A stretch of 64,000 nt of DNA from Polyangium spumosum (lineage in GTDB: Bacteria > Myxococcota_A > Polyangia > Polyangiales > Polyangiaceae). Within the stretch, counting starts at the first letter, position 1; the number at the start of each line of letters is the position of its first letter. Shown piece by piece: positions 30,263-41,326 of the stretch. A program made the position numbers and the translations under genes. Under the pieces are notes generated by a model. It saw only the letters and a list, made by a program, of their open reading frames with translations, was not told where the DNA came from and did not search any database. Location of the stretch: the NCBI RefSeq assembly GCF_009649845.1, contig NZ_WJIE01000006.1, forward strand, positions 682,001-746,000. Direction: 5' to 3'.

Positions 30263-31942
30263 ATGTCGACCCGCCACTCAGGTCCCCGTCCCGTCCGCGC
30301 GCCCCGCGGTTCCACCCTGTCTTGCAAGGGTTGGGTGCAGGAGGCCGCGCTGCGCATGCTCCACAACAACCTCGACGCCGAGGTCGCCGAGCGGCCCGAC
30401 GATCTGGTCGTGTACGGCGGCACGGGCAAGGCGGCGCGCTCGTGGGAGGCGTTCGACGTCATCGCGCGCGAGCTGCGGGACCTCGCGGACGACGAGACGT
30501 TGCTCGTGCAGTCGGGCAAGGCCGTGGGCAGGTTCCGCACGCACCCGGACGCGCCGCGTGTGCTCATCGCGAACTCGAACCTCGTCGGTCGCTGGGCGAA
30601 CTGGGACGAGTTCCGCAAGCTCGAGCAGCTCGGCCTGACGATGTACGGGCAGATGACGGCGGGCTCGTGGATCTACATCGGCACGCAGGGGATCTTGCAG
30701 GGCACGTACGAGACGTTCGTCGCGGCGCGCAAGGCGCACGAGGCGCGCTCGGGCCGCGAGGGCGGGCGCTGGGTGCTCACGGCGGGGCTCGGCGGCATGG
30801 GCGGCGCGCAGCCGCTCGCCGCGACGATGGCCGGCATGTCTTGCCTCGCGATCGAGATCGATCCGCACCGCATCGAGCGCCGGCTCTCGACGCGGTACGT
30901 CGATCGACGCATCGACGACCTCGACAAGGCGCTCGCGGCGATCGAGGCGGCCGTCGAGAAGAACCAGCCCACGTCGATCGCGATCTGCGCGAACGCGGCC
31001 GACGTCTTCCCCGAGCTCGTGCGTCGCGGCGTGGTGCCGGACCTCGTCACCGAGCAGACGGCCGCGCACGATCCGCTGATCGGCTACGTCCCGCAGGGCT
31101 TGTCGCTCGCGGAGGCGGCGGCGCTGCGGGCCGGGAACCCGAAGGAGTACGTCGCGCGGGCGAAGCGCTCCATGCGCCTCGAGGTCGAGGCCATGCTGGA
31201 GATGGCGCAATGCGGGGCGGAGGTCTTCGACTACGGCAACAACATCCGCACCTGCGCGCAGGAGGCCGGCTGCGAGCGCGCCTTCGACATCCCCGGCTTC
31301 GTGCCCGCGTACATCCGCGAGCTCTTTTGCCAGGGCAAGGGCCCGTTCCGCTGGGTCGCGCTCTCGGGCGATCCGGAGGACATCCTGGTCACGGACCGCG
31401 CCGTGCTCGAGGCCGTGCCGGACGACCCGGACCTCGCGCGGTGGATCAAGCTCGCGGAGGAGCGCGTGACGTTCCAGGGGCTGCCCGCGCGGATCTGCTG
31501 GCTCGGGTATGGGGATCGGGCGAAGGTCGGCCTCGTGTTCAACGAGCTGGTTCGTCAGGGCAAAGTGAAGGCGCCGATCGTGATCGGCCGGGACCACCTC
31601 GATTGCGGGTCGGTGGCGAGCCCGTTCCGCGAGACGGAGGGCATGAAGGACGGCTCGGACGCGATTGCGGACTGGGCGATCCTGAACGCGCTCGCGACCA
31701 CGGCGGGCGGCGCGTCCTGGGTGAGCTTCCACCACGGCGGCGGCGTGGGCATCGGCAATTCGCTGCACGCGGGGATGGTGATCGTCGCGGATGGGACGGA
31801 CGCGGCCGCTCGGCGGCTCGAGCGGGTCTTGACGATCGACCCCGGGATGGGCGTGATTCGGCACGCGGACGCGGGGTACGAGACGGCGATCCGCGTCGCG
31901 GACGCGAAGGGCGTGCGGGTGCCGCACCGGGTGAAGGGGTGA
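30263..31942 (+). CDS. hutU: Urocanate hydratase
   Basis: A 559-residue urocanate hydratase, which converts urocanate to 4-imidazolone-5-propanoate, the second step of histidine breakdown, using tightly bound NAD. Signatures are [15 protein letters not shown], the NAD-binding [16 protein letters not shown], and [15 protein letters not shown] containing the conserved cysteine region; the C-terminal [15 protein letters not shown] is also typical. The length is normal for the family. The other hut genes (hutH, hutI, hutG) are not in the window. The stop overlaps the next start by GTGA. Confidence 0.96.
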
Positions 31943-32367
31943 AGATCGGCGTTCACGATCTGGAGTTCGAGGCGCCCGACCTCGCGATCACGCGGGTCGG
32001 CGGGGACGCGACGCCCGACGAGGCGCGCGCGGTCGCCGAAGCGCTCGCCGCGTTCGCCACGAGAGGTCCCATCTTCCTCCTGGGCAACATCGGCGCCCCG
32101 GGCGCGACGATGTCCGCGCGGGCGCGGAAGATCCTCGTCGACGGCCTGCGGGACGCGACCATCGTCGCCGTCGCCGCGGTGGGCGGCGATTTCAAGGCGC
32201 GAATCATCATGCGGCTCGTCGAGGCGGCTTTTCGCCTGCTCTCGGGGAATCGGACCCGGATGCGGTTCTTCGACGACGAGCCGAGCGCACGGGCGTGGCT
32301 CTGCACGCAAGGTTGCGTCGCCTGCGGGGCGACATCCGTACCTGACAGATCGTCCGGATCGAAGTAA
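31939..32367 (+). CDS. SpoIIAA-like (STAS/SEC14-type) protein
   Basis: A 142-residue protein translationally coupled to hutU (GTGA at 31939-31942). The central and C-terminal parts match the SpoIIAA-like family: [28 protein letters not shown], and the terminal [16 protein letters not shown], which is the family hallmark. Such proteins are small alpha/beta domains related to STAS and lipid-binding SEC14 folds, of uncertain function. The two cysteines near the end ([10 protein letters not shown]) are unusual for the family. Confidence 0.65.
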
Positions 32368-32381
32368 CCTCCGCGCCCGAC

Positions 32382-34592
32382 ATGAGCCCTGCCCGTTCGT
32401 TCGTGGCGCTCGCGCCCCTCGCGCTCCTCGTCCTCGGCTGCCCTGGCCAGGCGAAGGTCACCGGCCCCGGGGACAAGACCGGCCCTCTGCCTTCGGCCTC
32501 CGCGACCGTCGAGGCCCCCGGCCCCGCGCTCGACCCGCCCCCGCCGACCCCCAAGAAGCCCGTCTTCAAGGAATATCACGGCGAGAGCGTCGCCGATGAT
32601 TACCAGTGGCTCGAGGACGGCACGAGCTCCGACGTCAAGAGCTGGGTCGGCGACCACAACCGGCGGACGCGCGCCTTCCTCGACATCCTGCCTGGCCGTC
32701 AGGCGCTCTACACGAGCGTGCGCAAGTTCGTCGAATACGGGTCTCCCGCGTTTTACGCGTTCCAGCACAAGGGCGGCGTCCTCTTTTCGATGCGCTGGCG
32801 GCCGCCGAAGCAGCAGCCGTTCCTCGTCACGCTCACGCCCGTCGACAAGCCGAACGCCGAGAAGGTCCTCGTCGATCCGACCACGATCGACCCTTCGGGG
32901 AACACCTCGATCGATTATTACGTCGCCTCGCCCGACGGGGCGAAGGTCGCGGTCTCGTTATCGAAGGGTGACCGCGAGGGCGGCTCGATCCGCGTCTTCG
33001 ACGTGGGCACGGGCCGCGAGATCGCCGAGGTCGTCCCGCAGGGCGCCGGCCGCTACAAGGGCAAGAGCATCGCCTGGAACGCCGGCGGCACCGGGTTTTT
33101 CTATACGAGGTACCCCTCGGAGGGCGAAGGCAAGAGCGAGGACCGAGGGTTTTTTCAGAAAGTATATTTCCACAAACTCTACGCGCCCGTGAAGGACGAC
33201 GCGCCCGCCCTCGACAAACTGCCGCGCCTCGCGCAGATCGACGTCGAGACGAGCGGGGACGGGAAGTTCGTCACGGCGCGTATCGAGAACGGCTACGGCG
33301 GGCCGACCGAGCACCACATCTTCCGCCAGGGCGGGGGTTTTACCAAGGTCGCGGGCGCCGCCGACGAGGTCGCGCGGGTCGTCGTCGGGCCTGACGGCGA
33401 CCTCTACGTGATCTCGAAGAAGGACGCGCCGCGCGGGAAGATCCTGAAGACCTCGGCGTGGAAGCCCGCGCTCGCGAAGGCCACGGTCGTCGTGCCCGAG
33501 GGCGAGGCGGTCCTGCGCGACGTGCTCCCCACCCCGCAGCGGCTCTACGTGCGCGCGACCGCGGGCGGGCCCTCCGAGATGCGCTGGTACGACCTCAAGG
33601 GCAAGCCCGGCGGGCTCGTCCCGATCCTGCCCGTCTCCGCGGTGCACGAGGTCGTGCTCCTCCAGGACGACGACCTCTACTTCGAGAACGAGAGCTTCAC
33701 CGAGGCCTCGGCCTGGTATCGCTTCAGCTCGAGCAGCGGCAAGGTCGAGAAGACCGCGATGGTCCAGCCCGCGACGGCCGATTTCAGCGACGCCGTCGTC
33801 GTGCGCGAGACGTGCACCTCCAAGGACGGCACGAAGATCCCGCTCAGCATCCTGCGCCGCAAGGACGCCAAGCTCGACGGGCAGAACCCCACGATCCTCA
33901 CGGGGCAGGGCGGCTTCGGCGTGGTGGTCTCGCCGGACTACGACCCCACGCGCAGGGCCTGGCTCGACGTCGGCGGCGTCGTCGCCGTGGCGAACGTGCG
34001 CGGCGGCGGCGAGAACGGCGACGGTTGGCACAAGGCCGGCATGCTCACGCAGAAGCAGAACGTGTTCGACGATTTCTTCGCCTGCGCCGAGCGATTGTTT
34101 GAGCTCAAAGTAACGAAGAACGAGAAGCTCGCCCTGCTCGGCGCCCCGCAGTCGTCGTTGCTCATGGGCGCGGCGATCACGCAGCGGCCGGACATGTTCC
34201 GGGCCGTCGTGGCGCGCGGCGGCATCTACGACATGCTCCGGCTCGAGGGCACGCCGAACGGCGCCTACGACGTCCCCGAGTACGGCACGACGGCCGACGA
34301 CAAGCAGTTCAAGGCGCTCTACGGCTACTCGCCCTACCACCGCGTCGAGGACGGCAAGCCCTATCCGGCGACGCTCTTGCTCACCGGTGAAAACGACCCG
34401 CGCGGCGATCCTTCCCACGCGCGCAAGATGGCCGCTCGCCTGCTCGCCGCGACGAGCGCGAAGGCGCCGATCCTCCTGCGTTCGAGCGGCGATACGGGCC
34501 GCGGCGTCGGCACGCCGCTCGAACACGCGGTGCTCGAGGCCGTGGACGTCTACACATTTCTGTTTCACGTGCTCGGCATCAAGAAGCCGTGA
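32382..34592 (+). CDS. Prolyl-oligopeptidase-like lipoprotein lacking the catalytic Ser and His
   Basis: A 736-residue lipoprotein (lipobox VLGC, Cys20) with a Pro-rich linker and then the full prolyl oligopeptidase architecture: N-terminal segment (YHGESVADDYQWLEDG), a seven-bladed propeller, and the C-terminal alpha/beta hydrolase domain. In active members the nucleophile sits in GGSNGGLLVGA; here it is GAPQSSLLMGA, with Pro589 where Ser should be. The histidine loop AGHGAGKP is TGRGVGTP, with Arg707 in place of His. The acid region (ENDPRGDP) is only partly kept. The fold is fully preserved, so this looks like a non-catalytic, surface-bound peptide-binding protein. A hairpin directly after the stop probably ends the transcript. 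Confidence 0.85.
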   Translation: MSPARSFVALAPLALLVLGCPGQAKVTGPGDKTGPLPSASATVEAPGPALDPPPPTPKKPVFKEYHGESVADDYQWLEDGTSSDVKSWVGDHNRRTRAFLDILPGRQALYTSVRKFVEYGSPAFYAFQHKGGVLFSMRWRPPKQQPFLVTLTPVDKPNAEKVLVDPTTIDPSGNTSIDYYVASPDGAKVAVSLSKGDREGGSIRVFDVGTGREIAEVVPQGAGRYKGKSIAWNAGGTGFFYTRYPSEGEGKSEDRGFFQKVYFHKLYAPVKDDAPALDKLPRLAQIDVETSGDGKFVTARIENGYGGPTEHHIFRQGGGFTKVAGAADEVARVVVGPDGDLYVISKKDAPRGKILKTSAWKPALAKATVVVPEGEAVLRDVLPTPQRLYVRATAGGPSEMRWYDLKGKPGGLVPILPVSAVHEVVLLQDDDLYFENESFTEASAWYRFSSSSGKVEKTAMVQPATADFSDAVVVRETCTSKDGTKIPLSILRRKDAKLDGQNPTILTGQGGFGVVVSPDYDPTRRAWLDVGGVVAVANVRGGGENGDGWHKAGMLTQKQNVFDDFFACAERLFELKVTKNEKLALLGAPQSSLLMGAAITQRPDMFRAVVARGGIYDMLRLEGTPNGAYDVPEYGTTADDKQFKALYGYSPYHRVEDGKPYPATLLLTGENDPRGDPSHARKMAARLLAATSAKAPILLRSSGDTGRGVGTPLEHAVLEAVDVYTFLFHVLGIKKP

Positions 34593-34701: not shown

Positions 34702-37700
34702 ATGAGCGAGACGGAGATGAACGGAGCTGCCAGTAAGACCCCGCTGCTCCCTTCGCGCGTCCTCTCCGGCAAGCGGCTGGTGGTCGTCGGCGGGACGGGC
34801 TTCCTCGGCAAGGTCTGGGTCTCGATGCTGCTGCATCGCTTCCCCGAGATCGGCCATCTCTACCTGCTCGTCCGGCCCAAGGCGGGCCAGACCGCCGAGG
34901 AGCGGTTCTGGTCGCAGATCGCCACCTCCGCCGCCTTCGACCCGCTCCGCGAGGCCCACCCGGGCGCCGAGTTCGAGCGGTGGATCGCCTCCAAGATCAC
35001 GGCGATCGCGGGCGACATCGTCCACCACGAGTGCGGGCTCGACAAGGACCTGCTCGCGCGGATCGACGGCACGATCGACGCCGTCGTCAACGTCGCGGGT
35101 GTCGTCGATTTCAGCCCGCCGCTCGACGAGGCGCTCGACGTGAACGCGTTCGGCGTGACGAACCTCGTCTCGCTCGCGCGTCGCCTCGGGGCGCCCGTCC
35201 TTCACACGAGCACGTGTTACGTCGCCGGCTACCGCTCCGGCCTCATCGAGGAGGTCGATCCGCGCGAGGTGCCGTTCCCGCGCGCCGAGGGCGAGACCTG
35301 GTTCGGCGCGGGCATCGCCGAGCGCACGCTCGATCGTTCGCACTGGGATCCGCAGCGCGAGATCGTCGAGTGCCTCGACCTCATCAAGCAGGCGCGGCAT
35401 CGCTGCGAGGATGCGTTCCGCCAGAGCGCCTTCCTCGACGAGGCCAAGGAGAACCTCCAGGCGCGCGGCGAGCCTGGCCGCGGCACCGCGCTCGAGGCCG
35501 AGCTCGCCAAGGTGAAGCGCCGCTTCATCGAGAGCCAGCTCATCGACGCCGGCACCGAGCGCGCGACCTTCTGGGGCTGGACGAACATCTACACGTACAC
35601 GAAGAGCATCGGCGAGCAGATCCTCGCGGCGAGCGGCGTGCCCTTCACGATCGTTCGTCCGGCCGTCATCGAGAGCTCGAGCGAGTATCCGTTCCCCGGC
35701 TGGAACGAGGGCATCAACACGAGCGCGCCGTTCATCTACATGGCCATGCAGGGCCAGGTGCAGATCCCCGGCGACCACCGGGTGCACCTCGACATCATCC
35801 CCTGCGACATGGTCACGAGCGGCATGATCGCCTCGCTCTGCGAGCTGCTCGAGGGCAAGGCGCCGGCCGTGTACCAGTATGGTTCGACGGACACGAATGC
35901 CTGCCGCATGACGCGGTACTTCGAGCTCATCGGTCTCTACAAGCGCAAGCTCGCGTACGAGGGCAAGCGCAGCGAGCTGCTCGACTGGGTCAAGGCGTAC
36001 TTCGAGCCCGTCGGCCTCACGAAGAAGCAATACCAGCAGCACGGCGCGCACAGCATCGCGAAGGCGATGAGCACCGTCGGCGGCGTGCTCGGCAAGCTCG
36101 CGGGTGGGCCGGTGCGGCCGCTGCTCAAGCCCGCGTCGGACATGCTCCTCAAGGCGGCGAAGGCCGAGGAGAAGATGGCCAGCGTGATGGACGTCTTCCT
36201 CCCCTTCGTCGCGGAGGCGGACTGGGTGTTCTCCTGCGCGAACACGCGCGCGGCGATCGCGCGTATGCCCCCCGAGGAGCGCGCGCGCTTCAACTGGGAG
36301 CCCGAGAAGCTCGATTGGCGCAAGTGGATGTGGGAGGTCCACATCCCGGGCCTCGAGAAGTGGGTCTTCCCGCTCATCGACGAGAAGCAGAACAAAGAGC
36401 TCAAGGCGCTGCGCAAGTACGACCACCTCATCGACCTCATCGAGGAGATGGCCGAGCGGCACGACCACGCGGTCGCGCTCCAGCTCCTCACGGACGAGGG
36501 CCTCACGCGCACCACGTTCCGCGAGCTGCGCGACGGCATGCTCGCCACGGCCGCGCGCCTCGCGGCGGTCGGGGTTCGTCCGGGTGATCGCGTCTTGCTC
36601 GCGGGCGAGAACCAGCCCGCGTGGCCCGTCGCGTACTTCGGCATCCTGCGGGCCGGCGCGGTCGCGGTGCCCGTCGATCCGGCGCTCGAGGAGCGCCAGC
36701 TCTCGAACATCCTCCGCTCGTCGGGCGCGCGTGTCGCGCTCTGGGATCCCTTCGTCGAGGAGAAGGGCGGCAAGGGCGCGCGCGCTGCGCTCCCCGAGCT
36801 CCGCGTCTACGACCTCGCGAGCTTCGCCGACCCCGACGCGCACGAAAACCTCCCCGCGCCCGAGGTCTCGTTCAAGGGCGATCTCATCGCGAGCATCATC
36901 TACACGAGCGGCACGACCGGTGATCCGAAGGGCGTCATGCTCTCGCACGACAACTTCACCGCGCTGCTCGCCGCGCTCGCGCCGATCTTCCCGCTCGCCC
37001 AGCACGACCGCATCCTGAGCGTCCTGCCGCTGCACCACACGTTCGAGTTCACGTGCGGGTTGCTCCTGCCGATCTCGCGCGGCACGCGCATCATCTACAT
37101 CGGCGAGCTCAGCGGCGAGCGCGTCTCGAAGGGCCTCAAGGAGGGTCGCATCACCGCGATGGTCGGCGTGCCCGCTCTCTGGCAGATGCTCGAGCGCCGC
37201 GTGACCTCGCGCGTGAAGGAGCAGGGTCCCGCGGCCGCCGCGGCCTTCGACTGGGCCCTCGAGCTGAACCGCTTGCTCGGCGAGAAGGCGGGCTTGAACC
37301 TCGGCCGCCTCTTCTTCGGCACGGTGCACAAGGCCCTCGGCGGCAACGTGCGTTTCTTGATCTCGGGCGGCGCGGCGCTGCCCAAGGACACGGCGAACGT
37401 CTTCCGTGGCCTCGGTTTGCCGCTCAGCGAGGGGTATGGTTTGACCGAGGCGGCGCCCGTGCTCACCGTGGCCAAGGCCTCGCCGAGCCTGAAGCCGGGC
37501 ACGGTCGGAAAGCCCATCCCGAACGTCGAGATCAAGATCGACAAACCCGACGCGGGCGGCGTCGGCGAGGTGCTCGCGCGTGGCCCCAACGTGATGCTCG
37601 GCTACGCGGGCAACGAGGAAGCCACGAGCGCGGCGATCGACGAAGCCGGCTGGCTGCACACGGGTGACCTCGGCAAGCTCGACAAGAAGGGCCGCCTCGT

Positions 37701-39438
37701 CATCGTCGGCCGCAAGAAGGACGTCATCGTCACGGCGAGCGGCGAGAACGTGTACCCGGACGACGTCGAGGACATCCTCGGCGGCACGCCGCACGTCCGC
37801 GAGCTCGCGATCGTGGGCATCGACGACGGGCAGGGCGGCGAGCGCGTCGCGTGCCTCGCCGTGCCGGAGCGCGACGAGGGTGAACCCGAGGAAGGCGAGA
37901 AGCGTCCTTCCCGCGCCGAGCGCCACGAGAAGGCGATGAAGGCCCTGCGCGAGGCGTTCCAGAAGCTCCCGAAGGTCGCGCAGCCCTCGGTCGTGCACCT
38001 CTGGGATCACGACCTGCCGCGCACGGCGACGCGCAAGGTCAAGCGCAGCGACGTGAAGGGCGTGCTCGCCAAGCTCGCGAGCGCCTCGGCCATGCCCGCG
38101 GGCGAGGGCGGCGGCGCGACGAGCGCCTCGGCGCGCCACGCGATCGCCACGATCGCGAACAAGAAGTCGACCGATCTCGCGCCGGGGATGAGCCTGCGCG
38201 GCGATCTGCGGTTCGACTCGCTCATGGCCATGGAGCTCGCGGCGGCGCTCGAGTCGCAGACGGGCCGGGCGATCGACACCGATCGGCTCTCGCGTTGCGA
38301 CACCGTGGGTGACGTGGAGGCGCTCGTCGTCGAGCTCGGCGGCGAGGCCGCGCACGAGGCCGAGCTCGCGAAGGTCGAGGAGGCCGAGGACGAGCCGATC
38401 AAGCTCCCGAGGCCGGTCGCCGACGCGGCCAAGCAGCTGCTCGGCAAGGCCCAGATGAACTTCTACGACCGGGTGATGCAACCCAAGGTCTACGGAAGGG
38501 CCTACATCCCGCACAACCGGAACACGATCGTCGCCTCGAACCACGCGAGCCACCTCGACATGGGGTTCGTCAAGTACGCCCTCGGCGCGTACGGCGACGA
38601 GCTCGTCTCGCTCGCGGCGCAGGACTATTTCTTCGAGGCGGGGAAATGGCGCCGCGCGTATTTCGAGAACCTGACGAACCTCGCGCCCTTCGACCGGAAG
38701 GGAGGCCTCCGGCAGGCGCTCCGCCAGGCGGGCGACCTGCTCGATCAGGGGAGCACGGTCCTGATCTTCCCGGAGGGCACGCGGAGCACGGACGGCCAGA
38801 TCCACGAGTTTGGCGCGGCGATCGGTCACCTCGCGCTGCATCACGAGGTCGACATCCTCCCGGTTTGGCTGGGCGGGACCTACGAGGCCCTGCCCAAGGG
38901 CGCGAGCTTCCTGAAGAAGCGCAACCTCACGGCGCGGATCGGCCCGCCGCTCGAGGTGCGCGAGCTCAGGCGCCTCACGGCCGGGATGAAGACGACCGTG
39001 GCGTGCCGCAAGGTCGCGGAGCTGACGCGGCAGGCGGTGGTGATGCTCAAGGAGGGCAAGGTGCTCGACATCCGGCAGATCGACCGGATCGAGGAGGCGA
39101 CGCCCAGGCAGGAGCACCCGCTCGTCGTCCTGTTCCGCGACCTCGAGACGAAGTTCGTCCCGGGCCGCGTGAACGCGCCGGTCACGTATTACTTCACGCT
39201 CGGCAACGAGAACGAGGCGAAATGGACGCTCCGCGTCGAGCCGAACCGGTGCGAGGCGAAGATGGGCAAACCCGAGGGCGCCGCCGCCGATTGCGTGCTC
39301 AAGACGAGCCCCGAGATCTTCCTCAAGATCGTGCGTGAGGCCTACACGCCGAGCCCGATGGAGTTCATGTCGGGCGCCGTGAAATCGAACGACATCTCCC
39401 TGCTCCTGACCTTCCAGAAGGTATTCGATCTCGCATGA
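34702..39438 (+). CDS. elbD: ElbD-like multidomain reductase / acyl-CoA synthetase / ACP / acyltransferase
   Basis: A 1578-residue multifunctional lipid enzyme. Residues about 20-440 form a fatty acyl-CoA reductase-like Rossmann domain (GGTGFLG near 31; YTYTK near 296). Residues about 575-1110 are an acyl-adenylating domain (YTSGTTGDPKGV near 734). An acyl-carrier domain (FDSLMAMEL, Ser near 1172) follows, then a PlsC-type acyltransferase (H-x4-D as NHASHLD near 1279; FPEGTR near 1355) and a C-terminal domain of about 110 residues resembling SCP2 sterol carriers. This matches the domain plan of ElbD of Myxococcus xanthus, required for iso-branched ether lipids that signal development. It probably activates, carries and reduces acyl chains and esterifies a glycerolipid. 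The stop overlaps the next gene by ATGA. The symbol rests on domain recognition. Confidence 0.82.
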   Translation: MSETEMNGAASKTPLLPSRVLSGKRLVVVGGTGFLGKVWVSMLLHRFPEIGHLYLLVRPKAGQTAEERFWSQIATSAAFDPLREAHPGAEFERWIASKITAIAGDIVHHECGLDKDLLARIDGTIDAVVNVAGVVDFSPPLDEALDVNAFGVTNLVSLARRLGAPVLHTSTCYVAGYRSGLIEEVDPREVPFPRAEGETWFGAGIAERTLDRSHWDPQREIVECLDLIKQARHRCEDAFRQSAFLDEAKENLQARGEPGRGTALEAELAKVKRRFIESQLIDAGTERATFWGWTNIYTYTKSIGEQILAASGVPFTIVRPAVIESSSEYPFPGWNEGINTSAPFIYMAMQGQVQIPGDHRVHLDIIPCDMVTSGMIASLCELLEGKAPAVYQYGSTDTNACRMTRYFELIGLYKRKLAYEGKRSELLDWVKAYFEPVGLTKKQYQQHGAHSIAKAMSTVGGVLGKLAGGPVRPLLKPASDMLLKAAKAEEKMASVMDVFLPFVAEADWVFSCANTRAAIARMPPEERARFNWEPEKLDWRKWMWEVHIPGLEKWVFPLIDEKQNKELKALRKYDHLIDLIEEMAERHDHAVALQLLTDEGLTRTTFRELRDGMLATAARLAAVGVRPGDRVLLAGENQPAWPVAYFGILRAGAVAVPVDPALEERQLSNILRSSGARVALWDPFVEEKGGKGARAALPELRVYDLASFADPDAHENLPAPEVSFKGDLIASIIYTSGTTGDPKGVMLSHDNFTALLAALAPIFPLAQHDRILSVLPLHHTFEFTCGLLLPISRGTRIIYIGELSGERVSKGLKEGRITAMVGVPALWQMLERRVTSRVKEQGPAAAAAFDWALELNRLLGEKAGLNLGRLFFGTVHKALGGNVRFLISGGAALPKDTANVFRGLGLPLSEGYGLTEAAPVLTVAKASPSLKPGTVGKPIPNVEIKIDKPDAGGVGEVLARGPNVMLGYAGNEEATSAAIDEAGWLHTGDLGKLDKKGRLVIVGRKKDVIVTASGENVYPDDVEDILGGTPHVRELAIVGIDDGQGGERVACLAVPERDEGEPEEGEKRPSRAERHEKAMKALREAFQKLPKVAQPSVVHLWDHDLPRTATRKVKRSDVKGVLAKLASASAMPAGEGGGATSASARHAIATIANKKSTDLAPGMSLRGDLRFDSLMAMELAAALESQTGRAIDTDRLSRCDTVGDVEALVVELGGEAAHEAELAKVEEAEDEPIKLPRPVADAAKQLLGKAQMNFYDRVMQPKVYGRAYIPHNRNTIVASNHASHLDMGFVKYALGAYGDELVSLAAQDYFFEAGKWRRAYFENLTNLAPFDRKGGLRQALRQAGDLLDQGSTVLIFPEGTRSTDGQIHEFGAAIGHLALHHEVDILPVWLGGTYEALPKGASFLKKRNLTARIGPPLEVRELRRLTAGMKTTVACRKVAELTRQAVVMLKEGKVLDIRQIDRIEEATPRQEHPLVVLFRDLETKFVPGRVNAPVTYYFTLGNENEAKWTLRVEPNRCEAKMGKPEGAAADCVLKTSPEIFLKIVREAYTPSPMEFMSGAVKSNDISLLLTFQKVFDLA

Positions 39439-40468: not shown

Positions 40469-41326
40469 ATGACGCACGACGATCTCCTCGGCCGATTCGT
40501 GAACTTGCCGGTGCGGCGCCTGGGCCCGCCGGGCGCGTTCCTCTCCGTCGATTCGAGGGATCTGCGGCCCAACGCGCCCGTCGTTCTCCTGCCCCGGGGC
40601 GAGGTCCCCGCGGGCACCAAGGAGGGCGACGAGCTCGACGTCTTCGTCTACCTCGATTCGGAGGGCCGGCCGATCGCGACGTTACGCAGGCCCAACGTGT
40701 CGCTCGACGAGGTCGCGTTCCTCGAGGTGAAGGACGTCAACCGGTACGGGGCGTTCTTCGATTGGGGCCTGCCGAAGGAGCTGCTCGTGCCGTACGCCGA
40801 GCAGACGCGCGACGTGCGCGTGGGCGAGCGGCACCCCGTCGGGCTCTTCCTCGACGATCGGGGGCGGCTCGCCGGGACGATGCGCGTGAGCGAGCTCTTG
40901 CGGGATCAGGGTGATTACGAGCTCGACGAATGGATCGAGGGCGAGGCGTGGCGGAACGACCCCGACATCGGCCTCTTCGTCATCCTCTCGCGGAAGGTGG
41001 TCGGCCTCGTCCCGGCGTACGAGCCGCACGGGCTCTCGCGCGGCGAGGCGGCGCGTTTTCGGGTGGCGAACATCCTGCCCGACGGCAAGGTCGAGCTCTC
41101 CTTGCGCGGGCACGCGCACGAGGAAATCGAGAACGACGCGGCGCGTGTGCTCGCGGTGCTCGGCCGTCCGGGCGCGCCGCCCGTCGGGGACCGGTCGAGC
41201 CCCGAGCAGATCCGGTCGATGTTCAACCTCAGCAAGAAGGCCTTCAAGCGGGCCGTCGGCCACCTCTTGAAGGAGCGCGTGGTCACCGTGGACCCGAAGG
41301 GGTTCCTCGTGCCAAACCGGCGCTAG
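40469..41326 (+). CDS. S1-domain RNA-binding protein, CvfB/YitL-like
   Basis: A 285-residue protein with the CvfB layout: tandem S1-like OB folds followed by a winged helix. DVNRYGAFFDWGLPKELLVPYAEQ is a typical S1 segment, GLVPAYEPHGLSRGEAARFRVA a second, and the C-terminal FNLSKKAFKRAVGHLLKERVVTV a winged-helix DNA/RNA-binding end. In staphylococci and bacilli CvfB binds RNA and affects virulence gene expression; the role in myxobacteria is not established. The length is normal. It appears to be transcribed on its own from the promoter at 40433. Confidence 0.88.
   Translation: MTHDDLLGRFVNLPVRRLGPPGAFLSVDSRDLRPNAPVVLLPRGEVPAGTKEGDELDVFVYLDSEGRPIATLRRPNVSLDEVAFLEVKDVNRYGAFFDWGLPKELLVPYAEQTRDVRVGERHPVGLFLDDRGRLAGTMRVSELLRDQGDYELDEWIEGEAWRNDPDIGLFVILSRKVVGLVPAYEPHGLSRGEAARFRVANILPDGKVELSLRGHAHEEIENDAARVLAVLGRPGAPPVGDRSSPEQIRSMFNLSKKAFKRAVGHLLKERVVTVDPKGFLVPNRR

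What the first reader, a model, noticed from the sequence alone, without database searches (positions are those of the whole stretch)
32382..34592. Prolyl-oligopeptidase lipoprotein with the catalytic Ser and His replaced
The fold-defining sequence is well kept, but GGSNGG is GAPQSS (Pro589 for Ser) and the His loop has Arg707. Both nucleophile and base are lost, so hydrolysis by the usual mechanism is excluded. Retention of the propeller and hydrolase domain suggests selection for peptide binding, for example as a sensor or inhibitor at the surface.
Basis: seen in the sequence. Interest (0 to 1): 0.58.

Follow-up and report, generated by a model that had tools for sequence, protein, structure and literature searches.

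The report
Genus-wide inactive prolyl oligopeptidase-like lipoprotein
A soil bacterium (genus Polyangium) carries a protein, probably exported, that is shaped like a peptide-cutting enzyme but has lost most of its cutting parts; its sister species keep the same dead version under normal selection, so it probably has a non-cutting job.

Summary
The ORF at 32382-34592 (736 aa) is a full-length S9A prolyl-oligopeptidase-type protein with Pro589 at the nucleophile Ser and Arg707 at the catalytic His. The damage is wider: the oxyanion Tyr is Gln509, the Asn after the nucleophile is Gln590, the following glycines are Ser/Ala and Ser/Pro, the S1 Val is Gly675. The catalytic Asp (D672) and S2 Arg (R674) remain. 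All six Polyangium genomes held carry this form; its elbow sequence is in 6 of 183 genomes of the order, all Polyangium. The 51 aligned close relatives outside the genus keep Tyr, Ser, Asn, Asp, Val and His. The six copies form one clade inside that intact family: one loss on the Polyangium stem. dN/dS against the window copy is 0.24-0.30, like intact POP paralogues (0.20-0.27), though higher than most neighbouring genes; the hydrolase domain is tighter than the propeller in 12 of 15 pairs. So it is a maintained pseudoenzyme, not a decaying gene. The proline-sensor idea is weakened because three of six S1-pocket positions are also replaced. A non-catalytic binding or scaffold role is most likely; the partner is unknown.

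The parts
32382..34592 (+). pseudo-prolyl-oligopeptidase gene, 736 aa, probable lipoprotein
32382..32441 (+). signal sequence ending in lipobox-like LVLGC (Cys20)
   Evidence: read by eye; Cys in the window copy and in the five other Polyangium copies; a similar Cys in 10 of 12 intact relatives printed (not seen for L022 and L104); no signal-peptide predictor was run
32541..33755 (+). Peptidase_S9_N beta-propeller, residues 54-458
33948..34577 (+). Peptidase_S9 alpha/beta-hydrolase domain, residues 523-732
33906..33908 (+). Gln509 in place of oxyanion-hole Tyr (porcine Tyr473)
34140..34157 (+). nucleophile elbow GAPQSS (residues 587-592) in place of GGSNGG; Pro589 for Ser
34269..34271 (+). Asp630 at the S1 Trp595 position (Asn in the intact close family)
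34395..34406 (+). DPRG (672-675): catalytic Asp and S2 Arg kept, S1 Val replaced by Gly675
34500..34502 (+). Arg707 in place of catalytic His
31939..32367 (+). neighbour: SpoIIAA-like (PF11964) small gene ending 14 bases before the pseudo-POP; functional link not shown

Best explanation
It is a maintained pseudoenzyme: the Polyangium member of a widespread, otherwise intact S9A peptidase family, which lost catalysis once on the genus stem and kept the export signal, propeller and hydrolase fold. Shown by computation: the residue losses, a single origin, purifying selection afterwards, and no close intact copy among the S9 propeller-peptidase genes found in the genus. Inferred: no hydrolysis by the serine mechanism, since Pro cannot adopt the strained nucleophile-elbow geometry and Arg cannot act as the general base. 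Inferred and uncertain: it works by binding, in the way DPP6 and DPP10 modulate partner proteins, holding a peptide or protein at the cell envelope through the interdomain cavity or the outer surface without cutting it.
For: Ser, His and oxyanion Tyr are replaced in 6 of 6 Polyangium copies and kept in 51 of 51 close relatives and 11 of 11 more distant ones, in all 66 other rows (64 distinct loci) and in 26 of 26 (recounted). The elbow DNA pattern occurs in 6 of 183 genomes of the order, all Polyangium. The six form one clade (SH-aLRT 100) nested among intact members. Of 42 S9_N places in six Polyangium genomes, 36 are not this gene, and 36 of 36 keep Ser and His; the best of them is about 37% identical. 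dN/dS against the window copy is 0.24-0.30, against 0.20-0.27 in nine comparisons of two intact POP paralogues. The hydrolase domain (0.08-0.21) is below the propeller in 12 of 15 pairs. In the hydrolase domain 6 of 9 near-invariant literature active-site columns are replaced, against 7 of 92 others (Fisher p 9e-5). AF2: pLDDT 84.9, pTM 0.85; POP structures match at Z about 48.
Against: No partner, ligand or phenotype is known. dN/dS is higher than in hutU (0.12-0.17), NSDHL (0.11-0.17) and the gene at 40469 (0.15-0.17), and close to the quinone-oxidoreductase-like gene (0.21-0.29), so constraint is ordinary, not strong. Eight of 60 near-invariant propeller columns are replaced too, the same rate as in the hydrolase domain as a whole (13 of 101). 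In 3 of 15 pairs the hydrolase domain is not the tighter one. The pocket changed beyond the triad, so binding in the old cavity may be gone. The loop with Arg707 has low model confidence (residues 701-710 mean pLDDT 64). The six genomes are closely related, so invariance of single positions says little. Fisher's test was made after seeing which sites had changed. Neighbours give no functional hint.
Confidence: 0.62

Rival explanations
1. A dying gene: catalysis was lost and the open frame is simply not yet broken.
For: 21 of 161 family-near-invariant columns are replaced in all six, including 8 of 60 in the propeller; the stem branch is long (0.77 changes per column); dN/dS is higher than in most neighbours.
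Against: The frame is intact in 6 of 6 genomes at dS of 0.05-0.24; dN/dS 0.24-0.30 is like that of catalytic paralogues; intact relatives have similarly long branches (L026 0.67, L043/L044 0.99).
Confidence: 0.07
2. A sensor or binder of Pro-containing peptides in the old substrate cavity.
For: Fold, Arg674 (S2), Phe512 and Tyr634 kept; catalytic-Asp mutants of porcine POP still hold a proline peptide (PDB titles 1o6f, 1o6g: D641A/D641N with Suc-Gly-Pro).
Against: The S1 Trp position is Asp, Asn555 is Gln, Val644 is Gly, and the elbow carries Pro. The intact close family already lacks the Trp that stacks on proline.
Confidence: 0.2
3. An enzyme with a new active site in the same cavity (other nucleophile or chemistry).
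For: Asp672 and Arg674 kept; fixed residues new to the family include Tyr629, Asp630, Ser678 and Ser701, besides Arg707.
Against: No new fixed Cys or His in the hydrolase domain; the His and Cys fixed in all six occur in the active family too.
Confidence: 0.06
4. Sequencing or alignment artefact.
For: None found.
Against: Six separate assemblies agree; the alignment on both sides of each motif is unambiguous.
Confidence: 0.01

Closest known systems
Myxococcus xanthus prolyl endopeptidase (PDB 2bkl), S9A
   Same: Two-domain fold over residues 54-734, 354 bits; TM-score 0.85 by query length
   Different: 2bkl has Ser, Asp, His, the oxyanion Tyr and the S1 Trp; the window protein has Pro, Asp, Arg, Gln and Asp there
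Intact close S9A family of Polyangiales, Verrucomicrobiota, Pseudomonadota and others (e.g. L015, L016, L083, L104)
   Same: About 38-53% identity, both domains, and a lipoprotein-like N-terminus in 10 of 12 printed
   Different: 51 of 51 keep Tyr, Ser, Asn, Asp, Val and His; hutU and the reductase-fusion neighbourhood of Polyangium was not found around the 19 examined
DPP6 and DPP10, inactive S9B proteins of animals (PMC4350108, passages read)
   Same: Propeller plus hydrolase fold with the nucleophile Ser replaced; in DPP10 an essential active-site Tyr of DPP4 is also replaced (Asp568); DPP10 modulates potassium channels by association
   Different: S9B and transmembrane, Ser replaced by Asp or Gly; in DPP10 His and Asp remain and the elbow conformation is unaltered; here the His and the elbow are lost as well, and the organism is a bacterium
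PREPL (PMC11385081, passages read)
   Same: POP homologue with functions that survive loss of the catalytic Ser
   Different: PREPL is catalytically competent; the non-enzymatic role was shown with an engineered Ser mutant

Membership tests
S9A prolyl oligopeptidase family (by descent and fold) | Peptidase_S9_N propeller and Peptidase_S9 domain in one chain | tested here: met
   both far above cut-off (168.6 vs 24 and 124.7 vs 22.6 bits); fold
S9A prolyl oligopeptidase family (by descent and fold) | Nested among S9A sequences in a tree | tested here: met
   (68 rows)
Catalytically active S9A peptidase | Nucleophile Ser in GxSxGG | tested here: not met
   Pro589 in 6 of 6
Catalytically active S9A peptidase | Catalytic His | tested here: not met
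   Arg707 in 6 of 6
Catalytically active S9A peptidase | Catalytic Asp | tested here: met
   Asp672 aligns with the apPEP Asp that is Asn in the D622N entry
Catalytically active S9A peptidase | Oxyanion-hole Tyr | tested here: not met
   Gln509 in 6 of 6
Proline-specific POP | S1 pocket Trp stacking on proline | tested here: not met
   Asp630; Asn in 51 of 51 intact close relatives
Maintained pseudoenzyme | Purifying selection after loss of catalytic residues | tested here: met
   dN/dS 0.13-0.30 within the six, similar to active paralogues
Maintained pseudoenzyme | Absence of activity measured on protein | not testable with these tools
   needs an assay
Bacterial lipoprotein | Signal peptide II with lipobox Cys | tested here: inconclusive
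   Cys after a hydrophobic stretch in all six copies, read by eye; no predictor run

The most novel reading that the evidence does not exclude
On the Polyangium stem the active site of an exported S9A peptidase was rebuilt as a whole: the elbow residues 588-592, the oxyanion Tyr, three S1 positions and the His. It became a charged, non-proteolytic ligand pocket (Asp630, Asp672, Arg674, Arg707), giving a genus-specific envelope receptor or modulator in a predatory, social bacterium.
Probability: 0.2. Interest if true: 0.6.

Novelty: new member of a known kind. Interest (0 to 1): 0.4.

Why it matters
Dead peptidases of the S9 family are known from animals (DPP6, DPP10), where they regulate other proteins. 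A clean bacterial S9A case would give a tractable system to ask what the propeller-hydrolase capsule does without cutting: the loss is single and falls on one genus stem, active-looking relatives surround it, and constraint afterwards is like that of intact paralogues. It also warns that annotation as a prolyl oligopeptidase would be wrong in function for this gene.

Tried and rejected
Alternative nucleophile at the elbow: Ser591 and Ser592 rejected because they vary among the six. Local frameshift as the origin of GAPQSS: codons compared with intact relatives; flanking codons stay in register and I saw no simple shift that explains it, so substitutions are assumed. A second intact copy of this family in Polyangium: one search gave 42 S9_N places in six genomes. 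Six are this gene. Of the other 36, 25 were read as loci, 10 were fetched and one had been read as L077: 36 of 36 keep Ser and His, 32 of 36 the Tyr (the four weakest have His there). Operon partner: hutU, the pseudo-POP, the reductase fusion and the NSDHL-like gene lie in this order in the five other Polyangium genomes, and a 42-47% relative of the SpoIIAA-like gene lies beside hutU in the same five. Around 19 intact relatives none of hutU, the NSDHL-like or SpoIIAA-like gene matched; weak matches were seen to the quinone oxidoreductase (L112, 37%; L115, 33%, directly beside the POP) and to the AMP-binding part of the fusion (L117, 30%). Polyangium sp. 15x6 has about 4.3 kb inserted just before the pseudo-POP. 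The small-gene query was in the wrong frame and is void; one search replaces it. NCBIfam gave only far-below-cut-off matches. Literature: the listings (not all papers found were listed: 12 of 13, 10 of 13, 10 of 59) showed no title or abstract opening about an inactive bacterial S9A protein; this covers only the held open library. I first equated Gly613 with porcine Val580; recounting gives Val578, and Val580 corresponds to Ile615 (notes 3 and 4 record both).

Rows left out of the 51-member family set. From: fragments L050, L063, L065; more distant rows L046, L049, L052, L053, L054, L062, L073, L075, L077, L078, L001, L006; repeats L003 and L072. Ten further rows and 2bkl formed the distant group of 11. 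From: L084, L085, L091, L093 and L100 (loci already held), L087 (near copy), and the distant L098, L099, L101, L102, L103, L105, L107, L108. All of these also keep Tyr, Ser and His. L002, L005, L007, L008 and L071 gave no row; L074 was a 100-base stretch of no use. L109 and L110 do not cover the active site. In one search one genome (L133) was not used for the second paralogue.

Full report
What is there. The ORF at 32382-34592 on the + strand encodes 736 residues. Residues 54-458 match the S9 N-terminal propeller and 523-732 the Peptidase_S9 domain, both far above the curated cut-offs. The nearest solved relatives are prolyl endopeptidases, best Myxococcus xanthus 2bkl (354 bits, residues 54-734). 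The N-terminus carries a hydrophobic stretch and a Cys20 that reads as a lipobox; this was judged by eye.

The observation. Against 2bkl, GGSNGG is GAPQSS with Pro589 at the Ser, and the His loop has Arg707. Further replacements: Gln509 at the oxyanion Tyr, Gln590 at the Asn after the nucleophile, Gly675 at the S1 Val, Asp630 at the S1 Trp position. Kept: Asp672 at the catalytic Asp, Arg674 at the S2 Arg, Phe512 and Tyr634. The catalytic Asp was placed through the apPEP D622N entry. The S1 pocket list (Phe476, Asn555, Val580, Trp595, Tyr599, Val644), the triad numbers and Arg643 come from passages of PMC5589771. Tyr473 comes from a PDB title (1h2x), its oxyanion role from recall. Part of the mapping of porcine numbers to the window protein was counted from recall.

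Who has it. The protein was sought in the 183 genomes held for the order; 154 of 183 have a match at 1e-20. The six genomes of one genus, the window's own included, carry it: the five others at about 90% identity. All six show the same replacements. The next best matches in the order, at 52% identity and less, keep Tyr, Ser and His: 66 of 66 other rows (64 distinct loci) and 26 of 26, five of which are loci already counted (recounted). In a cleaned set of 51 close relatives, Tyr, Ser, Asn, Asp, Arg, Val and His are present in 51 of 51. The DNA pattern of the dead elbow is found in 6 of 183 genomes, all Polyangium, and the reversed control pattern in none of the 183. The tree of 68 rows places the six as one clade (SH-aLRT 100) inside the intact family, on a stem of 0.77 changes per column; the sister, L026, has support of only 86 and some forks next to it far less.

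Other copies in the genus. One search found 42 S9_N places in the six genomes. Six are this gene; the other 36 were read and 36 of 36 keep Ser and His. The nearest of them is about 37% identical and belongs to another branch of the tree.

Is it still under selection? Nei-Gojobori dN/dS among the six is 0.13-0.30 overall; the hydrolase domain gives 0.08-0.21, below the propeller in 12 of 15 pairs, and the N-terminal linker 0.20-0.70. Against the window copy, the pseudo-POP gives 0.24-0.30, two intact POP paralogues 0.20-0.27 (nine comparisons), the quinone-oxidoreductase-like gene 0.21-0.29, the reductase fusion 0.19-0.24, the glyoxalase-like gene 0.15-0.21, the gene at 40469 0.15-0.17, hutU 0.12-0.17 and the NSDHL-like gene 0.11-0.17. 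So the dead protein is held about as tightly as intact relatives, though less tightly than most neighbours. A caution: with 252 of 278 hydrolase positions invariant among the six, the fixation of Pro589 or Arg707 by itself says little.

Where the losses lie. Of 161 columns near-invariant (92% or more) in the intact family, 21 are replaced in all six copies: 8 of 60 in the propeller and 13 of 101 in the hydrolase domain, so the two domains do not differ in rate. Within the hydrolase domain, 6 of the 9 near-invariant literature active-site columns are replaced, against 7 of 92 others (Fisher p 9e-5, set chosen after the first look). Several of those seven (591, 592, 613, 629) lie beside the same motifs. 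Thus most fold-bearing invariants of the hydrolase domain stay and the catalytic site is taken apart.

Structure. AF2 on the window protein with 22 relatives gives pLDDT 84.9 and pTM 0.85. pLDDT is under 50 over residues 1-47; the two blocks with the elbow (581-600) stand at 86 and 84, but the block with Arg707 (701-710) only at 64. In the 50 rows shown each, Foldseek and VIA-align give POP-family enzymes: prolyl oligopeptidases, macrocyclases of the same fold and, lower in the VIA list, oligopeptidase B (2bkl TMq 0.85; best Z 48.9 over 665 residues). That Pro at the nucleophile position is incompatible with the usual strained elbow is established stereochemistry applied by inference.

Function. 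No hydrolysis by the serine mechanism is the secure inference. A binding or scaffold role at the envelope is the best guess, by analogy with DPP6 and DPP10 (PMC4350108, passages) and PREPL (PMC11385081, passages). A survey of prokaryotic serine proteases in five families (in the passages seen, S9 was not named among them) counted 42 putative inactive homologues of 966 (PMC2605481), so inactive members as such are not rare.

Neighbourhood. Order in the window: quinone-oxidoreductase-like gene, hutU, SpoIIAA-like gene, pseudo-POP, 1578-residue reductase fusion, NSDHL-like gene. The same order holds in the five other Polyangium genomes, except that in Polyangium sp. 15x6 about 4.3 kb are inserted between the SpoIIAA-like gene and the pseudo-POP. 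Around 19 intact relatives outside the genus this order was not found; three had a weak match to one of these genes, in one case a 33% quinone-oxidoreductase relative directly beside the POP. No functional link can be claimed.

Verdict. Observation confirmed and widened; interpretation partly supported. It is a new bacterial S9A member of the known kind of maintained pseudoenzymes, of moderate interest.

Noticed in passing
34702-39438 (+): 1578-aa fusion: NAD_binding_4 reductase, AMP-binding, PP-binding, PlsC-type acyltransferase, and an SCP2 match below its cut-off. The reductase comes first, unlike carboxylic acid reductases as I recall them; present in the five other Polyangium genomes.
   Followed up: no
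L080:3700-8000: Polyangium sp. 15x6 has about 4.3 kb inserted before the pseudo-POP, with ORFs that look by eye like a thiamine-diphosphate enzyme, a ketoacyl-synthase III-like protein and a cytochrome P450.
   Followed up: partly
intact relatives, e.g. L015-L044, L083, L104: The close S9A family has Asn where POP has the proline-stacking Trp595 (51 of 51), so its active members may not be proline-specific.
   Followed up: no
31939-32367 (+): SpoIIAA-like (PF11964, 31.2 bits) 142-aa gene with a GTG start, ending 14 bases before the pseudo-POP. Its counterparts in the five other Polyangium genomes are only 42-47% identical, far less than the neighbouring genes.
   Followed up: partly
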